Positions 45,132 to 53,241 of a stretch of 64,000 nucleotides of DNA are shown one piece after another (positions within the stretch are counted from its first letter, which is position 1; each line of letters begins with the position of its first letter). A program made the position numbers and the translations under genes. The notes beneath the pieces were generated by a model. It was not told the DNA's origin. It did no database searches and saw only the letters and a program-made list of their open reading frames with translations. This stretch comes from Hymenobacter sp. BT188 (GTDB taxonomy: Bacteria; Bacteroidota; Bacteroidia; Cytophagales; Hymenobacteraceae), in NCBI RefSeq assembly GCF_014333585.1, contig NZ_JACSCW010000001.1:310001-374000 (forward strand). The letters run 5' to 3'.

Positions 45132-46085
45132 CTACTGCGCTATCTTATCACTCCACACTTCATACGCCACCCGAAACGTATTACAATGGGCATCCACGAT
45201 GTCGCCGATACGTTCGGAATATCCGCCGCCCATGCTCACGGCCACCGGCAGATTGTTGTCCCGACAAAGCCCCAACACGAACTCATCCCGCTGGCGGCAG
45301 CCCTCCTTGGTGAGCGTCAGTTTACCCAGCTTATCAGTAGCCAATACATCCACGCCAGCCTGAAAAAACACGAAATCAGGCTTCACTTCGGCTAGCAGGC
45401 GAGGCAACGTGGCGGTAAGCTGGTCCAAATATTCCGCATCAGAAGTGCCCAGCGCCAACTCCAAATCCAGATCCGACTTCTCCTTACGAAGCGGATAATT
45501 AGCCCCCGCGTGCATAGAAAAGGTGAACACCCGCGGCTCCTGCTGAAAAATGCTGGCCGTACCGTCGCCCTGATGCACATCCAGATCGACGACTAACACT
45601 TGCTTAGCTAACTTATAATGCAGCAAATGCGCCGCAGCAATGGCAATATCATTGAGCACGCAAAAACCCTCACCCCGGTCGGCGAAGGCATGGTGGGTGC
45701 CGCCAGCCAAGTTCAGCGCCACGCCGTCAGTCAGGGCCCGCCGCGCCGATTGCAAGGTGCCGGCGCTGCTGCTCAAAGAACGGCGTACTAGCTGCTCACT
45801 CTGGGGTAAACCTAGCCGCCGTATTTCGGCAGGGGAGAGGCGCTGGTCGCGTACTTTGTGCCAATACTCTTGGGTGTGCACGCGCAGTATATCCTCCTCA
45901 GCGCAGAGGCCAGGGTCGTAAAAGTCAGTTTGGGGAGCAATTCCCTGCCACAGTAGCTGCGCCCGAATCAGCTCGTACTTGGCAATCGGAAACCGATGAC
46001 TGGGGGGCAAATCCAGGGTATAGCGTTCGGAAGTAGCGAGGCAGGGCATGAGGTAAAGACGCAAATAGAATGAACCCGAGAACAT
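45132..46085 (-). CDS. Histone deacetylase-family (acetoin utilisation) hydrolase
   Basis: A 317-residue member of the class II HDAC/acetylpolyamine amidohydrolase superfamily. The start is set at 46085; the first 14 residues of a longer frame are unusual. Catalytic-site motifs are GGTHHAFADRGEGFCVLNDIA (His-His and Asp), VVDLDVHQGDGT (zinc ligands Asp and His), and PDFVFFQAGVDVLATD. It should remove acetyl groups from lysine side chains or polyamines. The upstream region is AT-rich and contains the start of the Ro60-locus control region on the other strand. Confidence 0.87.
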   Translation of the reverse strand: MFSGSFYLRLYLMPCLATSERYTLDLPPSHRFPIAKYELIRAQLLWQGIAPQTDFYDPGLCAEEDILRVHTQEYWHKVRDQRLSPAEIRRLGLPQSEQLVRRSLSSSAGTLQSARRALTDGVALNLAGGTHHAFADRGEGFCVLNDIAIAAAHLLHYKLAKQVLVVDLDVHQGDGTASIFQQEPRVFTFSMHAGANYPLRKEKSDLDLELALGTSDAEYLDQLTATLPRLLAEVKPDFVFFQAGVDVLATDKLGKLTLTKEGCRQRDEFVLGLCRDNNLPVAVSMGGGYSERIGDIVDAHCNTFRVAYEVWSDKIAQ

Positions 46086-46436
46086 ACGTACACAGCGCAA
46101 CAAGAGTGCTCGGCTCTTTAATAACAACCTTAATCCAGTGATTTAAGCTATGATTGTAAAAAAAATATTTAGTTAAATAGAATTAAAAATATGCTCAATA
46201 ATGATTTAAATAAGGTTTTATAAAAGAAATGATTGATGTCAATAAAATTTATTTTAAAAATATATGCATTGCCTATTGCATGAATAAAATCAACCCTGCA
46301 TATTTGTTCCATCAACTACACAACGCCATGCTACGCTGCACCAATTTTATTTCCAAGCAAGACGCCCAGGAGCCACGGATCTCCAGCGCGGTTCGGTACA
46401 GCTAAGTAGCAGCAGATTCCCCTCTTATACTTCCGC
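46086..46436. other. AT-rich control region upstream of the Ro60 locus
   Basis: The stretch 46140-46310 is strikingly AT-rich compared with the rest of the window. A 25-codon open frame (46328-46405) starts MLRCTNFISKQDAQEPR and stops before a hairpin at 46437. It is unproven. The strong base bias between two GC-rich genes suggests a regulatory island or a recent insertion boundary. Confidence 0.4.
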
Positions 46437-46832: not shown

Positions 46833-48356
46833 ATGCGCTTCAACCTTACTCTCCCCCGCAACAAAAGCGTACGTAACCACGAGGGTGCCGCGGCCTTCGC
46901 TCTTACTCCACAATTGGAGCTGTACGCCGCCGTAGCCACGGCCGCCCTTAGCGACCAGTTCTACGAAACCGCCGATACGCGCTTGCTTCGCTTGCGCGAG
47001 TTGGTGGCCCGTAACGACCCCGCGTTTGTGGCCCGTTTGGCAGTGTATGCCCGCGAGCAGCTGTATTTGCGCACCGTGCCGTTGGTGCTCACCGTGGAGC
47101 TGGCCCGCCTGCACCGCGGCGACAATCTGGTAAGCCGTTTGGTGGCCCGGGTGGTGCAACGTGCCGATGAAATCACGGAGCTGCTGGCCTTCTATGCCCA
47201 AGCCAATGAGCGCGACGGGGTGAAAACCCTCAACCGCCTCTCCAAGCAGCTGCAGAAAGGATTAGCCTTAGCCTTCAACCGTTTCGACGGCTACCAGCTA
47301 GCCAAGTACAACCGCGCCGGTCGGGTGCGCCTCCGCGACGCCTTGTTTCTAGTGCACCCCACGCCCCGAAACGCAGCGCAGCAAGTCTTGTTCGATCAGC
47401 TCGTGCAGGGTACGCTGCCTACGCCTTACACCTGGGAAACCGAGTTGTCGGCCCTCGGGCAGCAGCACTTTGCTTCGGCCGCGGAGCGTAAGGCGGCATT
47501 CCGATTGGCTTGGGAAACGTTGATTGGGAGCGGCAAGCTGGGCTACATGGCCTTGCTCCGCAACCTGCGCAACATCCTCGAAGCCGACGTGTCGGCGGAG
47601 GCGGTGGAGCAGGTGTGTGCCCGCCTCACCGACCGGTTTGCGGTGGCGCGCTCCAAGCAGTTGCCTTTCCGCTTCCTAGCCGCCTACCGCGAGGTGCTGA
47701 CCGTACAGTCGGGCTACGTGGCGATGGTGCTTGAAGCCCTAGAAACGGCCATTGCCGAAAGCGCGGTCAACTTGCGCGGCTTCGACGCCGGCACCCGCGT
47801 ACTCGTGGCCTGCGACGTGTCGGGTTCGATGCAGCAACCCGTGTCGGCGCGCAGCAAAGTGCTGCTCTACGATGTGGGCCTGGTGCTCGGCATGTTGTTG
47901 CAGAGCCGTTGCAGCCACGTAACCACCGGCATGTTCGGTGATACGTGGAAGCGCATCAGCTTGCCCCGCGGCCGAGTGTTGCAAAACGTGCAGGAGTTCT
48001 ACCGCCGCGAAGGCGAGGTAGGCTACAGCACCAACGGTCACTTGGTCGTCCGCGACTTGGTGCAGCGCCGCGAAGTGGTAGATAAGGTGATGCTTTTCAC
48101 CGACGCCCAACTCTGGAACAGCACCGGCGACGGTAACACGCTGGCCCGAGCTTGGAGCGACTACCGCCGTACCATAGCGCCCAACGCCCGTCTGTACTTG
48201 TTCGACTTGGCCGGCCACGGCACCACGCCGCTGGAAGTGCGAGAGGGTCACGACGTTGCCCTGATTGCGGGTTGGTCGGATAAACTGTTCGACGTGCTGC
48301 AAGCCCTGGAAAACGACGAGTCGGCCTTGGCTGAAATAGAGAAAATTGATTTGTAA
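46833..48356 (+). CDS. rsr: Ro60/TROVE domain RNA-binding protein
   Basis: A 507-residue Ro60 orthologue (Rsr in bacteria). Residues about 1-320 form the TROVE HEAT-repeat ring; the start MRFNLTLPRNKSVRNHEGA and RLRELVARNDPAFVARLAVYA are typical. The C-terminal von Willebrand A-like domain has an intact MIDAS motif DVSGSM (Asp328, Ser330, Ser332). Ro60 binds Y RNAs on its outer surface and misfolded or 3'-ended RNA through its central hole; in Deinococcus and Salmonella it works with exoribonucleases. Length and motifs are normal. The gene is followed by the Y-RNA-like array and by two RtcB genes on the same strand, which fits an RNA repair or quality-control operon. Confidence 0.95.
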   Translation: MRFNLTLPRNKSVRNHEGAAAFALTPQLELYAAVATAALSDQFYETADTRLLRLRELVARNDPAFVARLAVYAREQLYLRTVPLVLTVELARLHRGDNLVSRLVARVVQRADEITELLAFYAQANERDGVKTLNRLSKQLQKGLALAFNRFDGYQLAKYNRAGRVRLRDALFLVHPTPRNAAQQVLFDQLVQGTLPTPYTWETELSALGQQHFASAAERKAAFRLAWETLIGSGKLGYMALLRNLRNILEADVSAEAVEQVCARLTDRFAVARSKQLPFRFLAAYREVLTVQSGYVAMVLEALETAIAESAVNLRGFDAGTRVLVACDVSGSMQQPVSARSKVLLYDVGLVLGMLLQSRCSHVTTGMFGDTWKRISLPRGRVLQNVQEFYRREGEVGYSTNGHLVVRDLVQRREVVDKVMLFTDAQLWNSTGDGNTLARAWSDYRRTIAPNARLYLFDLAGHGTTPLEVREGHDVALIAGWSDKLFDVLQALENDESALAEIEKIDL

Positions 48357-48362
48357 ACCTGG

Positions 48363-48420
48363 CCGTCATACAGAGCATTCCGCACATCAAGCGGAGCCGA
48401 AGCATCTCGCGTGCTGATGT
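48363..48420. repeat. Half palindromic element next to the Ro60 gene
   Basis: GTCATACAGAGCATTCCGCA followed by GCCGAAGCATCTCGCGTGCTGATG resembles the left half of the GTCATGCAGAG family (compare copy at 59955, which has GCCGAAGCATCTCGCGTGCTGATG). It has no matching right arm. Confidence 0.55.
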
Positions 48421-48433
48421 TTGAGTAGTAACT

Positions 48434-48517
48434 GTCATGCTGAGCCTGTCGAAGCATCTCTACCGCTTCGTTGAGTTTACCATTGTGGTAGAGATGCTTC
48501 GACAGGCTCAGCATGAC
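48434..48517. repeat. Palindromic element, GTCATGCTGAGCC subtype
   Basis: GTCATGCTGAGCCTGTCGAAGCATCTCTACC at the left is mirrored by GGTAGAGATGCTTCGACAGGCTCAGCATGAC at the right (perfect over the outer 30 bases). It is a subtype that ends GTCATGCTGAG instead of GTCATGCAGAG and sits between the Ro60 gene and the RNA array. Confidence 0.8.
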
Positions 48518-48543
48518 ACACAAAACATAAATTAAAACCCAAC

Positions 48544-48592
48544 AGTCGGGGGCCTAAATGCACAGCCAAACGGGCTGGGCCTGCTCCCGACT
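48544..48592 (+). ncRNA. Leading hairpin of the tRNA-like array
   Basis: AGTCGGG at 48544-48550 pairs with CCCGACT at 48586-48592; inside, GGCC pairs with GGCC, and AGCC pairs with GGGCT, giving a long imperfect stem. It ends about 20 bases before the first GGTGCCGTAG motif, so it may be the tRNA-like part of a first, more degenerate unit. No T-arm consensus is seen. Confidence 0.4.
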
Positions 48593-48629
48593 ACTTGGCA
48601 ACCTACAGGCAAGGTGCCGTAGATAGGCG

Positions 48630-48771
48630 TTACTTCGCTGGTTAGTCAGGCGGCCTTTGGGCTACCTGTTAGGGTTCGAATCCCGCTGGGGGGCTTTTTG
48701 CCGCCCAGACACGCCTACCGCTGTTGCCCTTGCTGCTGGGTTTGGTTGATATATCCCGCCGGGTGTCGTCG
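48630..48771 (+). ncRNA. Y-RNA-like unit 1 (tRNA-mimic, degenerate)
   Basis: Starts at TTACTTCG and ends at GGTGTCGTCG. A T-loop-like GGGTTCGAATCCC (48672-48684) is followed by a stem CTGGGGGGC / GCCGCCCAG (48686-48694 and 48700-48708, one G-G mismatch) closed by five T residues. No convincing D-arm follows, so this unit is less tRNA-like than the others. The stem contains the genome-wide CTGGGGGGCTTTTT motif and could act as a terminator, although T bases form the loop here. Confidence 0.5.
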
Positions 48772-48778
48772 GGTAGCG

Positions 48779-48930
48779 TTCCTTCGGGCCGCGGGTTCGA
48801 CTCCTGCCTTTCGCTTACCGATCCAGGCGGCGAAAGTAGCTCAGTTGGTAGAGCAGAATGGCTTCGGCCGCGCTTCTCATTTTTTACCCCGGTTGGGTTG
48901 TAATGGAAAGTACTTCATCGGGTGCCGTAG
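48779..48930 (+). ncRNA. Y-RNA-like unit 2 (tRNA-mimic)
   Basis: Starts TTCCTTCG. T-arm: GCGGG / CCTGC stem (48791-48795, 48803-48807) around TTCGACT. Acceptor-like stem: CTTTCGC (48808-48814) and GCGAAAG (48830-48836), a perfect 7-bp pair closed by a 15-base loop. D-arm: GCTC (48839-48842), loop AGTTGGTA with the invariant GG, GAGC (48851-48854). Ends at GGTGCCGTAG (48921-48930). The order T, acceptor, D is that of a tRNA cut at the anticodon and joined at the acceptor end. No CCA follows the acceptor strand, so it is a mimic, not a tRNA gene. Confidence 0.78.
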
Positions 48931-48937
48931 CCTAGCC

Positions 48938-49086
48938 TTACTTCGATTTCGATTCGCCGGGTCGGGGGTTCGATTCCCTCTCGTCAGCCTCCGGGCTGGC
49001 GGTAGCTCAGTTGGTTAGAGCAGGACAGTTGGCTGGGCGCCTTGTTGCCCCAATGAGTTATTATTTCTGCTACCCAAGTGCCGTAG
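48938..49086 (+). ncRNA. Y-RNA-like unit 3 (tRNA-mimic)
   Basis: Starts TTACTTCG. T-arm: GGGGG / CCCTC (48964-48968, 48976-48980) around TTCGATT. Acceptor-like stem: GTCAGCC (48983-48989) and GGCTGGC (48994-49000), 7 bp closed by the stable tetraloop TCCG. D-arm: GCTC (49005-49008), loop with GG, GAGC (49018-49021). A GGGC / GCCC hairpin follows around the repeated GCCTTGTT sequence. Ends AGTGCCGTAG (49077-49086). This is the clearest unit. Confidence 0.8.
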
Positions 49087-49093
49087 GAAGGCG

Positions 49094-49243
49094 CTACTTC
49101 GGTGAGATTCACTTGTGAATCAGCGGGTTCAAACCCCGCAACTTGTGGCTTCGGTCGCAAGAGACACGTTGGCAAAAGCGTGTCGGCAACGCCTGCCGTT
49201 CGTTGCCTTGGGTAGCAGCTTGTTTTCCTGATAGGTGCCGTAG
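49094..49243 (+). ncRNA. Y-RNA-like unit 4 (tRNA-mimic, different D-arm)
   Basis: Starts CTACTTCG. An extra hairpin GATTCA / TGAATC precedes the T-arm like a long variable arm. T-arm: GCGGG / CCCGC (49123-49127, 49135-49139) around TTCAAAC. Acceptor-like stem: CTTGTGGC (49142-49149) and GTCGCAAG (49154-49161), 8 bp closed by TTCG. D-arm: GACACG (49163-49168), loop TTGGCAAAAG with GG, CGTGTC (49179-49184), a longer stem than in other units. A GGCAACG / CGTTGCC hairpin follows. Ends GGTGCCGTAG (49234-49243). Confidence 0.75.
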
Positions 49244-49250
49244 TGCAGCC

Positions 49251-49383
49251 TTACTTCGCTATAACGCTAAGGTCGGAGGTTCGAGTCCTTCCTGCCTTCG
49301 GGCAGTAGCTCAGTTGAGAGCATAGCATAGTGGCTGCACGCCTTGTTGCCCCAGCAGGAGCCGAGCCGGAGAAGGTGTCGTCG
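49251..49383 (+). ncRNA. Y-RNA-like unit 5 (tRNA-mimic)
   Basis: Starts TTACTTCG, and the following GCTAT can pair with ATAGC after the D-arm, closing the base of the tRNA-like body. T-arm: GGAGG / CCTTC (49275-49279, 49287-49291) around TTCGAGT. Acceptor-like stem: CTGCC / GGCAG (49292-49296, 49301-49305), 5 bp closed by TTCG. D-arm: GCTC, loop AGTTGA lacking the GG pair, GAGC (49308-49321). Ends GGTGTCGTCG (49374-49383). The sixth copy of the TTCCTTCG half at 49391 has no tRNA-like part behind it. Confidence 0.78.
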
Positions 49384-49474
49384 GGTAGTATTCCTTCGTT
49401 CTGAAAATACGCAAGCGGACTACCCAGCTTTTTCACCCGTTTCCGTGCCTCGGCAAATTTATCAGAACGTCAAG

Positions 49475-49658
49475 CTCCCCTCATCAGATGAGGAGGGGAC
49501 GCCGTGCCGCAGGCGCGGCTGGGGTGGTTGAAGTCATTGTTTAGTTGAACGATACCGGCGTCTGCATAACCGCCTTTCAAACAACATCAGCAACGAGGTC
49601 AACCACCCCGGCTTTGGCTTCGCCAAACCATCTCCTCCTCATCTGAGGCGAAGAGGTA
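49475..49658. repeat. REP-like doublet with internal hairpins
   Basis: Two halves face each other: 49475-49532 and 49599-49658. Both carry TCAGATGAGGAGG and GGGGTGGTTGA-type ends in opposite orientation. Between these ends each half forms its own hairpin, GCCGTGCCGCAGGCGCGGC in the first and GGTTTGGCGAAGCCAAAGCC in the second: the stems pair although their sequences differ. It lies just upstream of the first rtcB gene. Confidence 0.65.
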
Positions 49659-49700
49659 GTCGTTCACATTGCTTCATTTCTTCTCGACAAAAACCTACTC

Positions 49701-51101
49701 ATGGCCCAACAATTACGTGGCAACGACCTCTGGCAGCTTGGCTTCCCCGAGGGTCGAGCCATCGGCCTTGCGCTGGCTCAATTGCAGCGCAAGCATCTCA
49801 AGAGACTTTCTCTACCCAATCAGCTCACGCTCTTACAGCAAATTCTGACTACTCCCATGGACTTTGTTACGCACCTCGATTGGAGCCACGTGGCAGCTGC
49901 GTTGCTCCCGCCACCTTCGCGTCATATCGAATTGGTGGCGCGCAAACCCTATGCCCTCTACGGGGCCGAACACATTGAAGCCGGCGCCCTGCACCAGATG
50001 GACACGGCCATGAAATTGCCCGTCACGGTAGCGGGTGCCCTCATGCCCGACGCCCACCACGGCTACGGCTTGCCCATTGGCGGCGTACTGGCCACCGACA
50101 ACGACGTAATTCCCTACGCCGTGGGCGTGGACATCGGCTGCCGCATGGCCTTGTCGGTGTATAATTTGCCCCCCAAGCACCTCACCCAGCGGGTACAGGA
50201 ACTGCAAAAGCTGCTTCTGGACAACACGCGTTTCGGCAACCGAACTGGCTTTCAGCACGGCCGCAAAATGGGCCACGAGGTGCTGGATCGGGACGAATTT
50301 CGCGACATTCCCTTCCTGCGCAACAAGCAGGCAACGGCCGCCGAGCAAATCGGTACGTCGGGTTCCGGCAACCACTTCGTCGAATTCGGCATCGTGGACA
50401 TCACGGAGCCGACGAACGGGATGGGCGTTCCGGTAGGCCAGTATGTGGGCTTGTTGTCGCACTCTGGCTCGCGGGGCCTGGGCGCGGGGGTGGCCAACCA
50501 CTACACCAAGCTAGCCATGGAAAACTGCCAGCTGCCCTCTGAAGCCAAGCACCTCGCCTGGCTTTCCCTCGACGGGGAATTGGGCCAGGAGTACTGGGCG
50601 GCCATGAACCTGGCGGGCGCGTATGCGTCGGCCTGCCACGAGCACATTCACCAGCGGATGGCGAAAGCCTTGGGCGAGCGGCCTTTGGCGAAAGTGGAAA
50701 ACCACCACAACTTTGCCTGGCGCGAGACGCTAGCCGACGGCCGGGAGGTAATTGTGCACCGCAAGGGCGCCACGCCGGCCGGCAAAGGCGTGCTCGGCGT
50801 GATTCCCGGCTCGATGACGGCTCCGGGCTTTATCGTGCGCGGTCGGGGCGTGGCCGATTCCTTGGGGTCGGCTTCGCACGGGGCGGGCCGCCTCATGTCG
50901 CGCACGCGGGCCAAGCAGGAGCTAAGCGAGTCGGCGGTGCGCCAGTACCTCACCGACCACGGGGTAGTGCTGCAAGGCGGCGGCCTCGACGAAGCGCCCA
51001 TGGCCTACAAGGACATCCACGCCGTGATGCAAAGCCAGCAAGAGCTAGTGGACGTGCTCGGCTCCTTCACCCCGAAAATCGTGCGCATGGACGGTGCGTA
51101 G
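49701..51101 (+). CDS. rtcB: RtcB RNA ligase, first copy
   Basis: A 466-residue GTP- and Mn2+-dependent RNA ligase that joins 2',3'-cyclic phosphate or 3'-phosphate ends to 5'-OH ends. All active-site parts are visible: Asp and Cys in GVDIGCRM, His in GSGNHFVEF, His in LLSHSGSRG, His in VENHHNFAW, and the guanylated His in SASHGAGRLMSR. An N-terminal extension of about 75 residues (ELWQLGFPEG-like) is shared with the second copy. The gene follows the RNA array by about 320 bases and is closed by its own terminator. It can repair cleaved tRNAs or process array RNAs. Confidence 0.95.
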   Translation: MAQQLRGNDLWQLGFPEGRAIGLALAQLQRKHLKRLSLPNQLTLLQQILTTPMDFVTHLDWSHVAAALLPPPSRHIELVARKPYALYGAEHIEAGALHQMDTAMKLPVTVAGALMPDAHHGYGLPIGGVLATDNDVIPYAVGVDIGCRMALSVYNLPPKHLTQRVQELQKLLLDNTRFGNRTGFQHGRKMGHEVLDRDEFRDIPFLRNKQATAAEQIGTSGSGNHFVEFGIVDITEPTNGMGVPVGQYVGLLSHSGSRGLGAGVANHYTKLAMENCQLPSEAKHLAWLSLDGELGQEYWAAMNLAGAYASACHEHIHQRMAKALGERPLAKVENHHNFAWRETLADGREVIVHRKGATPAGKGVLGVIPGSMTAPGFIVRGRGVADSLGSASHGAGRLMSRTRAKQELSESAVRQYLTDHGVVLQGGGLDEAPMAYKDIHAVMQSQQELVDVLGSFTPKIVRMDGA

Positions 51102-51108
51102 AGGATGG

Positions 51109-51145
51109 AAAAAGCCCCCCAGAAGTTTTCTGGGGGGCTTTTTTT
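51109..51145. terminator. Bidirectional terminator from two inverted GGGGGGC motifs
   Basis: AAAAAGCCCCCCAGAA pairs with TTCTGGGGGGCTTTTT around a short loop, right after the first rtcB stop codon. Transcription of the second rtcB therefore probably starts anew. Confidence 0.92.
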
Positions 51146-51155
51146 GTGATAGAAG

Positions 51156-51373
51156 GTCATGCAGGATACGTAGCTTATTAATCCGGGCACGAAGCATCTC
51201 ATTCGCTTCATCTGTCATCCTGAGGCACGAAGGGCCTTTTCACGTGTGAACAAATCATTCATCTGGCATAAGGTCCTTCGTGCCTCAGGATGACAACGAC
51301 TATTGGGGCCATTGCTCTGGGAATGTACTCGCTACACTCAGCACGCGAGATGCTTCACTGCGTTCTGCATGAC
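51156..51373. repeat. Palindromic GTCATGCAG element interrupted by a second palindrome
   Basis: Outer arms: GTCATGCAGGATACG...CGAAGCATCTC on the left and GAGATGCTTCACTGCGTTCTGCATGAC on the right. Inside, at 51214-51294, a second element with ends GTCATCCTGAGGCACGAAGG and CCTTCGTGCCTCAGGATGAC interrupts it. The nested layout shows a later insertion of one element into another, between the two rtcB genes. Confidence 0.75.
51214..51294. repeat. Inner palindromic element, GTCATCCTGAG subtype
   Basis: GTCATCCTGAGGCACGAAGG is exactly mirrored by CCTTCGTGCCTCAGGATGAC, with about 40 bases between. It belongs to the same class of short palindromes as the GTCATGCAGAG family but has its own arms, and it lies inside the element at 51156-51373. 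Confidence 0.78.
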
Positions 51374-51482
51374 GTTCTTACGAACACAAAACCTATTATA
51401 TCAACCTCGCCAAACGAAGCTCAACCATAACCTATAACCACCGATCAGCGCTACAACCGGGAACAACCCAACTTCCGCCATC

Positions 51483-52919
51483 ATGGCTAAAGCAACGAAC
51501 AAACTCCACAGCAAAGACCTGCGCCAAATCGGCTTTACCAACGACCAGCACATAAGCCTCGCCCTCGATATCCTCGACCAACGTGAGCTACGCCGACTTG
51601 ATAAAGGCAGCGCGCAAGCCTTGCTACAGGAAATAAAAAATGACCCGTTCAAGTACTTACGCGACGAAAACTGGCGGCCCCTCGCTGAGGAGCTCGTGCC
51701 CCAGCCGTCGCGCGATGTGGCCCTCAATCCCGAAATCAAAGACTATCGCCGCTATGGCGAGGCTTTTATTGAAGATGGCGCCCGCAAGCAGATGGACACC
51801 GCTATGCAGTTGCCCGTCACCATTGACGGAGCGCTAATGCCCGATGCTCACCAGGGCTACGGCCTGCCTATCGGTGGCGTGTTGGCGGTCGACAATGCGG
51901 TGATTCCCTACGGAGTGGGCATGGACATTGGCTGCCGGATGGCGCTGTCTATCTTCGACATGCCGGCCAGCTACCTGAACAAGCACAGCCAGGATTTGCG
52001 CAAGTTGCTGCTGGAGCACACCAAGTTTGGTAACAAAGAAGTATTCAAAAAGCCTTTCACCGACGACCCCATTTTCGAGCGGCCGGAGTTTCGCGAAATC
52101 GGCGTGGTGCGACAGAAGCGCGATTCAGCAATTTCTCAGATTGGCAGCTCCGGCTCGGGCAACCACTTTGTGGAGTTTGGGCTCGTAGATATTACCGATC
52201 CGAATAATGAAATGGGCGTGCCCATTGGGCAGTATGTCGGCTTACTATCGCACTCTGGCTCGCGGGGATTAGGTGCAGCGGTAGCGCAGCACTTTACGAA
52301 GGTAGCCATGGAAAAATGCCCCCTACCGTCCCAGGCGCGGCATTTGGCCTGGCTGTCGCTAGATTCGCAAGAAGGGCAGGAGTACTGGCGGGCCATGAAC
52401 TTGGCCGGTGACTATGCCTCGGCCTGCCACCACGATATTCACCGTCGCCTCAGCAAGGCCTTGGGTAATAAACCGCTGGCCCAAGTAGAGAATCACCACA
52501 ACTTTGCTTGGAAGGAAAAGCTGCCTGATGGCCGTGAAGCCATTGTGCACCGTAAGGGTGCCACGCCGGCTGGCAAAGGCGTGCTCGGCGTGATTCCTGG
52601 TTCTATGACGGCTCCTGGCTTCATCGTGCGGGGTCGGGGTGAAAGGGACTCGCTCCAGTCGGCATCACACGGGGCCGGACGTCGCCTCAGCCGCACTCAA
52701 GCAAAAGCACAAGTAGGAGAGGGCGATATGCGCCGCCAACTGCGCGACCACGGCGTAGAACTCATCGGCGGTGGCCTCGACGAAGCGCCTGCCGCCTACA
52801 AAGACATTCACCAAGTAATGGCTCACCAGCGCGATTTGGTAGATGTGTTGGGCACGTTCACACCTAAAGTTGTACGTATGGATGCGGGTGGAGGTAGAGG
52901 AAAAGGACGAGGGGAGTAG
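51483..52919 (+). CDS. rtcB: RtcB RNA ligase, second copy
   Basis: A 478-residue RtcB paralogue, similar over its whole length to the first copy. Active-site motifs are intact: GMDIGCRM, GSGNHFVEF, LLSHSGSRG, VENHHNFAW and SASHGAGRRLSR. The N-terminus (KDLRQIGFTNDQHISLAL) has the same extension, and the C-terminal tail is Gly/Arg/Lys-rich (GGGRGKGRGE), absent from copy one and likely RNA-binding. Two complete ligases beside a Ro60 gene suggest divided tasks, for instance repair versus processing. A single CTGGGGGGCTTTTT motif follows its stop codon directly at 52920. Confidence 0.95.
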   Translation: MAKATNKLHSKDLRQIGFTNDQHISLALDILDQRELRRLDKGSAQALLQEIKNDPFKYLRDENWRPLAEELVPQPSRDVALNPEIKDYRRYGEAFIEDGARKQMDTAMQLPVTIDGALMPDAHQGYGLPIGGVLAVDNAVIPYGVGMDIGCRMALSIFDMPASYLNKHSQDLRKLLLEHTKFGNKEVFKKPFTDDPIFERPEFREIGVVRQKRDSAISQIGSSGSGNHFVEFGLVDITDPNNEMGVPIGQYVGLLSHSGSRGLGAAVAQHFTKVAMEKCPLPSQARHLAWLSLDSQEGQEYWRAMNLAGDYASACHHDIHRRLSKALGNKPLAQVENHHNFAWKEKLPDGREAIVHRKGATPAGKGVLGVIPGSMTAPGFIVRGRGERDSLQSASHGAGRRLSRTQAKAQVGEGDMRRQLRDHGVELIGGGLDEAPAAYKDIHQVMAHQRDLVDVLGTFTPKVVRMDAGGGRGKGRGE

Positions 52920-53055
52920 CTGGGGGGCTTTTTGTAAAGTGTTTTTGGTCATGCTTGATCTGGCGTCCGCTGGTCGAACCATCTCTACTGAGTGCTGATC
53001 AATAATATTGCAACGAAGCAACTACGCCCACAAGGACCTGTTCAAGGAAGCCACC
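52920..53055. other. End of the rtcB locus with a half palindrome
   Basis: After the stop codon come CTGGGGGGCTTTTTG (52920) and, near 52948, GGTCATGCTTGATCTGG...ACCATCTCTAC, which resembles half of a GTCATGCTGAG-subtype element that has lost its mate. No gene seen. Confidence 0.45.
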
Positions 53056-53157
53056 GGCACACCGCCAGCAAGTGGCCGCTGAAGCAGGCTTTTCTCATTC
53101 GCCACTTCCGCCACGGTACTGAAGCCTGCTTCAGCGGCCACTTGCTGGCGGTGTGCC
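53056..53157. repeat. 36-bp perfect inverted repeat
   Basis: Bases 53056-53091 are exactly the inverted copy of 53122-53157 (outer end GGCACACCGCCAGCAAGTGG), with a 30-base spacer. The arms are GC-rich and could encode protein on either strand. It has no relation to the GTCATGCAGAG family. A decayed mobile element or a duplicated fragment of an old gene is possible; no transposase is seen. Confidence 0.75.
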
Positions 53158-53241
53158 AGGAAGATTTATGTCACCTCGACGTTTGGTTCCGCCCTGAAAA
53201 TCAGGCTCGTTTTATTTGTGCACCCGCTTAACTGGTTTGAA

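What the first reader, a model, noticed from the sequence alone, without database searches (positions are those of the whole stretch)
46833..52919. Ro60 gene, five-unit tRNA-like RNA array and two RtcB ligases in one locus
A TROVE/Ro60 gene, at least five tandem RNA units with T- and D-arm signatures (48630-49383), and two complete rtcB genes lie in a row on one strand with no other gene between them. The known enteric operon joins rsr, YrlA/YrlB Y RNAs and rtcBA. Here RtcA and RtcR are missing, the Y RNA part is multiplied and rtcB is doubled. This suggests a lineage-specific RNA repair or quality-control system in which several different Y RNAs serve one Ro60 ring and two ligases.
Basis: partly seen in the sequence, partly recalled or inferred. 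Interest (0 to 1): 0.93.

Follow-up and report, generated by a model that had tools for sequence, protein, structure and literature searches.

The report
Ro60-linked array of tRNA-mimic RNAs
Between a Ro60 gene and two RNA-ligase genes this bacterium carries a row of predicted small RNAs whose likely fold copies a whole tRNA in rearranged order, in some of them with an anticodon loop, and they would serve as Ro60-held tRNA stand-ins that the ligases could reseal, which would give a puzzling RNA family a testable role.

Summary
One Ro60 gene, six tandem Y-RNA-type units (five found by a covariance model, one a weak stem-only copy) and two intact rtcB genes lie in a row; RtcA and RtcR are absent genome-wide. 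The units do not look like decayed tRNA genes: a Ro60-type basal stem carries a circularly permuted tRNA-like head, the known YrlA plan. What is new here is that many heads also carry an anticodon arm. Nucleotides 27-28, after the D-arm, covary with 42-43 (99% paired), and a 3-bp, 7-nt hairpin follows the basal stem. In 73 of 112 heads that hairpin is complete; 70 of the 73 keep U33 and 68 a purine at 37, while 24 different triplets occupy 34-36. Across 43 species the triplet changes often (15, 10, 10 steps), its flanks hardly (2, 1). The arm also occurs in 8 of 16 Ro60 stretches from plasmids and phages. In Hymenobacter, rtcB lies downstream of Ro60 in 81 of 82 Ro60-bearing genomes; the rtcB doubling is one old duplication, seen in tandem in 21 of 82. 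I infer a Ro60-held panel of tRNA decoys or adaptors, with RtcB resealing cuts. Transcription, binding and cleavage are untested; the founding Y-RNA papers could not be read.

The parts
46833..48356 (+). Ro60/Rsr protein gene (507 aa; TROVE ring plus vWA domain)
   Evidence: aligns over residues 13-499 with solved TROVE proteins 9l5y/9kop
48605..48736 (+). Y unit 1: basal stem, short T-arm (3 bp), closed acceptor-like hairpin; no D-arm
   Evidence: R2 E 1.1e-6; fold
48754..48896 (+). Y unit 2: YrlA-like, T-arm, acceptor hairpin, D-arm; no anticodon arm
   Evidence: R2 E 1.4e-13; Rfam YrlA 32.7 bits, below its cut-off of 69
48913..49057 (+). Y unit 3: complete permuted tRNA mimic with anticodon arm
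   Evidence: R2 E 6.7e-29 (unit 3 is in the model); structure counts
48944..48956 (+). Unit 3 anticodon-like hairpin: 3-bp stem, 7-nt loop UUUCGAU at 48947-48953 (U33, triplet UCG, A37)
48957..48958 (+). Unit 3 nt 42-43 (CC), predicted to pair with 49023-49024
   Evidence: helix 99.1% paired over 112 units
49023..49024 (+). Unit 3 nt 27-28 (GG) after the D-arm
49067..49218 (+). Y unit 4: 12-bp outer stem (49067-49078 with 49207-49218), long variable-arm hairpin, T-arm, acceptor hairpin, replaced D-arm
   Evidence: searches (inverted repeat I3, found without a model; R2 49069-49215, E 8.6e-10), fold
49226..49358 (+). Y unit 5: permuted tRNA mimic; nt 27-28/42-43 pair, anticodon hairpin weak in this species
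   Evidence: R2 E 2.1e-24 (unit 5 is in the model)
49365..49440 (+). Y unit 6: stem-only copy without tRNA-like head, weak (approximate limits)
   Evidence: motif; not found by R2 here; counterpart L003:10510-10590 found
49701..51101 (+). RtcB1 RNA ligase; its counterpart lies downstream of Ro60 in all 48 Hymenobacter-group loci fetched
51483..52919 (+). RtcB2 RNA ligase, paralog from one duplication at the base of the Hymenobacter group

Best explanation
The locus encodes a Ro60 protein, a head-to-tail array of predicted Y RNAs whose covarying structure copies whole tRNAs in permuted order, and two RtcB ligases, and the RNAs likely work as Ro60-held tRNA decoys that RtcB would reseal when an anticodon nuclease cuts them. 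Shown by sequence and covariation: the permuted order (anticodon arm or direct junction, variable loop, T-arm, acceptor stem closed by a hairpin loop, D-arm) on a basal stem; nt 27-28 pairing with 42-43, so that the basal stem is inserted between nt 28 and 29 of the anticodon stem; a 7-nt loop with U33 and purine 37 around a fast-changing triplet; several distinct, old paralogs per array; and rtcB as the steady neighbour in Hymenobacter. Inferred: co-transcription, processing into single RNAs, Ro60 binding, recognition of the loops by anticodon-directed proteins, and resealing by RtcB. My split: anatomy about 0.95, anticodon arm about 0.93, decoy role about 0.4, RtcB resealing of these RNAs about 0.35.
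For: Over 112 distinct heads the anticodon hairpin pairs in 83.0% of cells against 56.2% shuffled and 25-41% slid, score 0.681 against at most 0.240; 27-28 with 42-43 in 99.1%, six and five pair types, score 1.153 against at most 0.217; acceptor hairpin 92.1%, all seven pairs with changes on both sides; whole head 94.8% against 70.8% shuffled and 39-52% slid (T- and D-stem figures are helped by how heads were chosen). Neither the hairpin, U33 nor 27-28/42-43 entered that choice. Basal stem 94.6% and upper helix 97.4% paired over 58 units, but unit ends had been picked for pairing, so this is partly built in; the 12-bp stem of unit 4 was found without a model. Loop: 73 of 112 with three pairs; U33 70 of 73, purine 37 in 68 of 73, 24 triplets; outside the Hymenobacter group 13 of 34 with three pairs, U33 in all 13. 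Parsimony steps in 43 species: 33, 2; 34-36, 15/10/10; 37, 1. The window genome's tRNA-Asn(GUU) anticodon arm recurs exactly (17 of 17 nt) in two arrays and with one difference in a third. 202 of 202 headed units are closest to a unit of another species. rtcB within 8 kb downstream of Ro60 on the same strand in 81 of 82 genomes. Same arm in 8 of 16 plasmid and phage stretches. All 79 full-length RtcB proteins (63 RtcB1-type, 16 RtcB2-type) keep the five Cys/His motif patterns. In print, Salmonella YrlA has been suggested as a competitive inhibitor of the anticodon nuclease active in that response (PMC7790460, passages).
Against: No expression, binding or cleavage data. In the same paper YrlA fragments were not seen, so it is not a substrate of that nuclease, though the Rfam YrlA consensus has no anticodon arm. 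39 of 112 heads lack a full 3-bp hairpin, and in this window only unit 3 of six has one. Among other unit types, 9 of 105 with a perfect 5-bp arm is within shuffles (mean 4.5, maximum 10 of 200). Agreement of isotype between D-arm and variable region is not established: Leu-like D-arms go with a Leu-like variable region in 13 of 18, but so do 18 of 22 YrlA-like units with another D-arm, and overall p is 0.065. Where Ro60 is lost, rtcB stays intact with few Y units or none found, so rtcB does not need the array. Outside the Hymenobacter group only 14 of 32 fetched loci have rtcB downstream. No Bacteroidota-type promoter stood out (one match in 64 kb, one expected, far away).
Confidence: 0.5

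Rival explanations
1. Tether model: the tRNA-like heads recruit PNPase or tRNA-handling proteins to the Ro60 ring for decay or quality control of structured RNA, as reported for Deinococcus; the anticodon arm only helps the tRNA-like fold, and rtcB is a stress-response neighbour acting on real tRNAs.
For: Ro60-Y RNA-PNPase machine and DusA/TruB recognition of YrlA are described in a review (PMC8394870, passages). Many units have no anticodon arm (22 of 305 are YrlA-like without it, 101 show no qualifying T-arm by my scan). rtcB persists where Ro60 is lost.
Against: It does not explain why U33 and purine 37 are kept around a freely changing triplet, nor rtcB within 8 kb downstream in 81 of 82 Hymenobacter genomes.
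Confidence: 0.36
2. Sensor or carrier model: cut Y RNAs, or tRNA halves paired to the heads, are held by Ro60 and presented to RtcB, so the RNAs act in repair as guides and not as bait.
For: rtcB adjacency; rtcR and rtcA absent, so another damage read-out may be needed; several different heads per array.
Against: No direct support; in Ro60-less genomes rtcB persists with few Y units or none found.
Confidence: 0.1
3. Decayed tandem tRNA cluster without function of its own.
For: T- and D-arms are tRNA-like; model R1 also matches in all 33 Ro60-less genomes, apparently at real tRNA genes (the places were not checked).
Against: ARAGORN finds no tRNA; acceptor hairpin, 27-28/42-43 and anticodon hairpin covary; units are kept in dozens of species; 37 distinct host tRNA sequences were found elsewhere.
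Confidence: 0.02

Closest known systems
YrlA / bacterial Y RNA (Rfam RF02553; Salmonella YrlA, PDB 6CU1)
   Same: Beside Ro60; basal stem from the two RNA ends; permuted T-arm, acceptor hairpin, D-arm; YrlA superposes on tRNA with a circular permutation (PMC11472068, passages).
   Different: Several units in tandem; many carry an anticodon arm between basal stem and variable loop, which the Rfam consensus lacks and treats as an insertion in the Methylosinus relative; scores 30-33 bits against a cut-off of 69.
Enteric RNA repair operon rsr-yrlBA-rtcBA with rtcR (PMC7790460, passages)
   Same: Ro60, Y RNAs and RtcB together on one strand.
   Different: No RtcA or RtcR in the genome; two RtcB; more Y RNAs.
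Deinococcus Ro60-Y RNA-PNPase machine (PMC8394870, passages)
   Same: Ro60 plus Y RNA with a tRNA-like head.
   Different: PNPase recruitment untested here. The two Deinococcus plasmid stretches examined show one R2 unit each, with a 3-bp (D. taeanensis) and a 2-bp (D. gobiensis) anticodon hairpin.

Membership tests
Bacterial Y RNA (kind, by anatomy) | Encoded next to a Ro60 gene | tested here: met
   units between Ro60 and rtcB1 in 48 of 48 related loci
Bacterial Y RNA (kind, by anatomy) | Basal stem of the two ends with a bulged conserved motif | tested here: met
   lower helix 94.6%, upper helix 97.4% paired (unit ends had been picked for pairing); likeness to the vertebrate motif is recalled
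Bacterial Y RNA (kind, by anatomy) | tRNA-like head in permuted order (T-arm before D-arm) | tested here: met
   in the window units 2, 3 and 5 have both arms
Bacterial Y RNA (kind, by anatomy) | Binds Ro60 | not testable with these tools
   needs pull-down
Rfam YrlA (RF02553) | Score at or above the gathering cut-off of 69 bits | tested here: not met
   33.3, 32.7 and 30.5 bits; the YrlA match in a classic rtcR-rsr-rtcB locus of Methylosinus also misses it (49.9 bits)
rsr-yrl-rtcBA repair operon | rtcA and rtcR present | tested here: not met
   none in own genome; both searches ring in E. coli
rsr-yrl-rtcBA repair operon | rsr, Y RNA and rtcB adjacent on one strand | tested here: met
Ro60 (Pfam TROVE) | TROVE and Ro60 vWA domains over cut-off | tested here: met
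Rsr (NCBIfam NF041674 equivalog) | Score over 900 | tested here: not met
   33.1 bits: Ro60 family, not this narrow equivalog
RtcB ligase | PF01139 and active-site Cys/His motifs | tested here: met
   (residue roles recalled)

The most novel reading that the evidence does not exclude
Ro60-bound Y RNAs of bacteria and phages are bait tRNAs: a panel of whole-tRNA mimics with U-turn anticodon loops and fast-changing anticodon triplets that draw anticodon nucleases away from real tRNAs, with RtcB (here two copies) resealing bait and tRNAs, that is, an RNA-level decoy and repair shield.
Probability: 0.3. Interest if true: 0.95.

Novelty: new variant of a known kind. Interest (0 to 1): 0.78.

Why it matters
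What bacterial Y RNAs do in RNA repair operons is open. If many of them present an anticodon loop, the link between Ro60, tRNA mimicry and RtcB becomes concrete and testable: a cut in the anticodon loop is the kind of damage RtcB is thought to mend. It would also mean that the Rfam YrlA consensus lacks a helix that many relatives have, and that some annotated phage tRNA genes are probably pieces of Y RNAs.

Tried and rejected
Decayed tRNA cluster: rejected. Recent tandem amplification: rejected; 202 of 202 headed units are nearest to another species' unit, and in comparisons with one other species at a time the foreign unit wins in 7000 of 9605 (species with Ro60 identity under 0.95). Independent function of the array without Ro60: looked promising in four of 33 Ro60-less genomes with units next to rtcB (G044, G028, G083, G084; a fifth, G049, has a weak match there, E 0.0026). 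But G044 and G028 keep both ends of Ro60 with the middle missing and G084 an N-terminal piece, so I read it as recent Ro60 loss. G044 still has six units (two over 100 bits); G028 has four (22-47 bits), G083 two (41 and 15), G084 one (35). Low scores also occur in intact arrays, so decay is likely but not proven. D-arm/variable-region isotype agreement: not established (the score also of 22 YrlA-like units Leu). A perfect 5-bp anticodon arm in units of other types: not above shuffles as a whole. A crude variable-arm hairpin test did not separate classes and is not used. Promoter pattern: nothing. R1 is not specific in whole genomes (115 of 115 match, with or without Ro60), so presence rests on R2 and on position.
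Full report
What is there. The window lies in a Hymenobacter-type genome (nearest named Ro60: H. qilianensis, 94% identity). Ro60 (46833-48356), RtcB1 (49701-51101) and RtcB2 (51483-52919) are intact and on one strand. Between Ro60 and RtcB1 lie six repeats of a 28-nt motif, 140-159 nt apart. The genome holds one Ro60, two RtcB (both here), no RtcA and no RtcR.

What the units are. Rfam's YrlA model sees three of them at 30-33 bits, below its cut-off of 69 and only for model positions 23-88. I fetched 80 related loci (356 confirmed, best 80 kept): 48 of the Hymenobacter group (47 Hymenobacter, one Solirubrum) and 32 others, titled as Bacteroidota except one titled Williamsia (L076). All 48 have rtcB1 downstream of Ro60. 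Of the 32 others, 14 have an rtcB downstream, 3 only upstream and 15 none within the stretch. A full-unit covariance model, R2, built from 58 units, gives 328 matches at E<=0.01 in the 48 loci plus the window and 103 in the 32 others (some of these are probably real tRNAs). By a motif scan the 49 arrays hold 305 units, 4-8 in 44 of 49 arrays (range 1-10): 71 with D-arm and anticodon arm (at least 2 of 3 pairs), 6 with D-arm but a poor hairpin, 22 with D-arm and none, 18 with a Leu-like and 15 with a Ser-like D-arm, 72 with another head and 101 in which the scan saw no qualifying T-arm, among them truly stem-only units. It reads this window as: unit 1 no T-arm by its rule, unit 2 YrlA-like, unit 3 anticodon-armed, unit 4 other, unit 5 poor hairpin, unit 6 stem-only.

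The fold. Unit ends pair in a long basal stem interrupted by a bulged motif (5' GGUGCCGUAG, 3' UGUUGCC), then an upper helix of about 8 bp; over 58 units 94.6% and 97.4% of cells pair, and the whole structure gives 96.0% against 77.5% shuffled and at most 52% slid. I had picked the 3' ends of units for pairing, so the stem figures are partly built in; the 12-bp outer stem of unit 4 was found by the repeat finder alone. The head runs anticodon arm, variable loop, T-arm, acceptor stem closed by a loop, D-arm. I aligned 112 distinct heads from nt 29 round to nt 28. They were selected by the 5' motif, a T-arm with at least 4 of 5 pairs and a TAGCTCA-type D-arm, with at least 23 nt between motif and T-arm; so T- and D-stem percentages are helped by the selection, but the hairpin, U33, the acceptor and 27-28/42-43 did not enter it. 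Nt 27-28 pair with 42-43 in 99.1% of cells, with six and five pair types. The 3-bp anticodon hairpin pairs in 83.0% against 56.2% shuffled and 25-41% slid. Thus the basal stem is inserted between nt 28 and 29 of a tRNA anticodon stem. Related rows inflate such counts; the slid controls keep relatedness and fall far short.

The loop behaves like an anticodon loop. 73 of 112 heads have all three pairs. Of these 70 have U33 and 68 a purine at 37; there are 41 distinct loops and 24 distinct triplets, most often UUU (21) and CUU (10), which are lysine anticodons. Outside the Hymenobacter group 13 of 34 heads have three pairs and all 13 have U33. On a neighbour-joining tree of Ro60 from 43 species, one anticodon-armed unit per species (stem GCA, GCG or CGA, treated as positional orthologs) needs 2 changes at 33 and 1 at 37, but 15, 10 and 10 at 34-36, 10 at 38 and 7 at 32. 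Two other arrays hold the anticodon arm of the window genome's tRNA-Asn(GUU) letter for letter and a third differs by one base (tRNAs). In this window unit 3 has the loop UUUCGAU; unit 5 has the 27-28/42-43 pairs but a weak hairpin.

Not only these bacteria. Among 16 Ro60 stretches from plasmids and phages (fetched by Ro60 likeness), R1 listed 41 matches at E<=0.1; three stretches (L146, L148, L156) had none. I checked 24 of the 41 by position and left out 17, weak ones and ones at annotated tRNA genes. Nine of the 24 meet all four criteria (at least 2 pairs, U33, purine 37, 27-28/42-43): Rhizobium and Methylosinus plasmids, two Deinococcus plasmids, and phages of Xanthomonas, Rhizobium, Gordonia and Caulobacter (two units), that is 8 of 16 stretches. 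R1 was trained on such heads, so it is a finding aid; the stretches were not chosen by it. Two annotated phage tRNAs, tRNA-Arg(tct) in Gordonia phage VanLee and tRNA-Gln in Caulobacter phage CcrColossus, overlap such units.

Evolution of the locus. In 115 Hymenobacter genomes of at least 90% completeness, this one included, 82 have Ro60 and 110 RtcB; all five RtcB-less genomes lack Ro60 (Fisher p 0.0015, relatedness ignored). rtcB lies within 8 kb downstream of Ro60 on the same strand in 81 of 82; the exception has them on different contigs of a 600-contig assembly. At least two RtcB lie within 12 kb in 21 of 82 (the place list was cut, so a lower bound). A tree of 37 of the 79 full-length RtcB proteins puts Hymenobacter RtcB1 and RtcB2 in one clade each, sister to each other (96/95) and apart from Rufibacter, Pontibacter and Cesiribacter: one duplication at the base of the group. 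In four of 33 Ro60-less genomes Y units still precede rtcB; three of these keep pieces of Ro60, and only G044 keeps units over 100 bits. So the array probably shrinks once Ro60 is gone, while rtcB stays.

How it most likely works. Shown: the anatomy above. Known for the families (recalled or from papers seen in passages): Ro60 rings bind Y RNA stems; YrlA heads are handled by tRNA enzymes (PMC8394870); RtcB joins ends left by metal-independent RNases (PMC7824862); the Salmonella operon answers to tRNA fragments (PMC7790460). Inferred: the array yields a set of Ro60-bound tRNA stand-ins. Keeping the loop fold while the triplet changes fits a target of loop-directed proteins better than any decoding role, and suits bait for anticodon nucleases whose cuts RtcB could reseal. 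The tether model stays a serious rival, and both may be true.

Known or new. The kind, Ro60-linked tRNA-mimicking Y RNA, is known, as are several Y RNAs per species (recalled; Salmonella has YrlA and YrlB). A held review says that YrlA resembles the D, T and acceptor arms (passages), and the Rfam consensus printed has only four unpaired nucleotides between stem and T-arm. Full-text searches for Y RNA with Hymenobacter (0 papers) and with anticodon, Ro60 and tRNA-like or mimic terms (listings only, 15 of 27 and 9 of 9 shown) gave no title or abstract start that mentions an anticodon arm in a Y RNA. The founding papers are not held, so priority is open. I therefore call it a new variant of a known kind.

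Noticed in passing
20 of the 80 fetched loci, e.g. L036:9650-10480; L128:4229-5080: A gene like microbial PARG (PF10021, Pfam-checked in L128 only; others by tblastn) lies between Ro60 and all or most of the array; absent in this window.
   Followed up: partly
29 of the 80 fetched loci, e.g. L005:6620-7912; L028:11580-12866; L128:5574-6860: A PcfJ-like gene (PF14284, Pfam-checked in L128 only; one match partial) just upstream of Ro60 or within/after the array.
   Followed up: partly
L128, L129, L131: Ro60 remnants in Ro60-less Hymenobacter genomes that keep rtcB1: both ends with the middle missing (L128, L129), an N-terminal piece (L131).
   Followed up: partly
L153:2129-2200; L155:1661-1728: Two annotated phage tRNAs (Arg, Gln) overlap anticodon-armed Y RNA units and are probably misannotated.
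   Followed up: partly
window 48433-48518, 51110-51301, 53054-53160: Strong hairpins, the first a perfect 32-bp inverted repeat; matches to unrelated sRNA and miRNA families look spurious (perhaps REP-like elements).
   Followed up: no
G028:C28:377847-377978 and similar: R1 and R2 also match places in Ro60-less genomes that look like junctions of neighbouring real tRNA genes (not checked); such junctions might be how permuted heads arose.
   Followed up: no
L031:9950-10082; L040:11701; L043:11438: Units that carry a tRNA-Asn(GUU) anticodon arm exactly, in natural order before the T-arm (L031 seen by eye).
   Followed up: partly
L143:2052-2192: Phage unit whose D-arm looks like tRNA-Glu and whose loop, read one nucleotide off my fixed offset, would show a Glu triplet; it fails the fixed-offset test.
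   Followed up: no
window 45132-46127: Histone-deacetylase-family gene upstream of Ro60 on the other strand.
   Followed up: no
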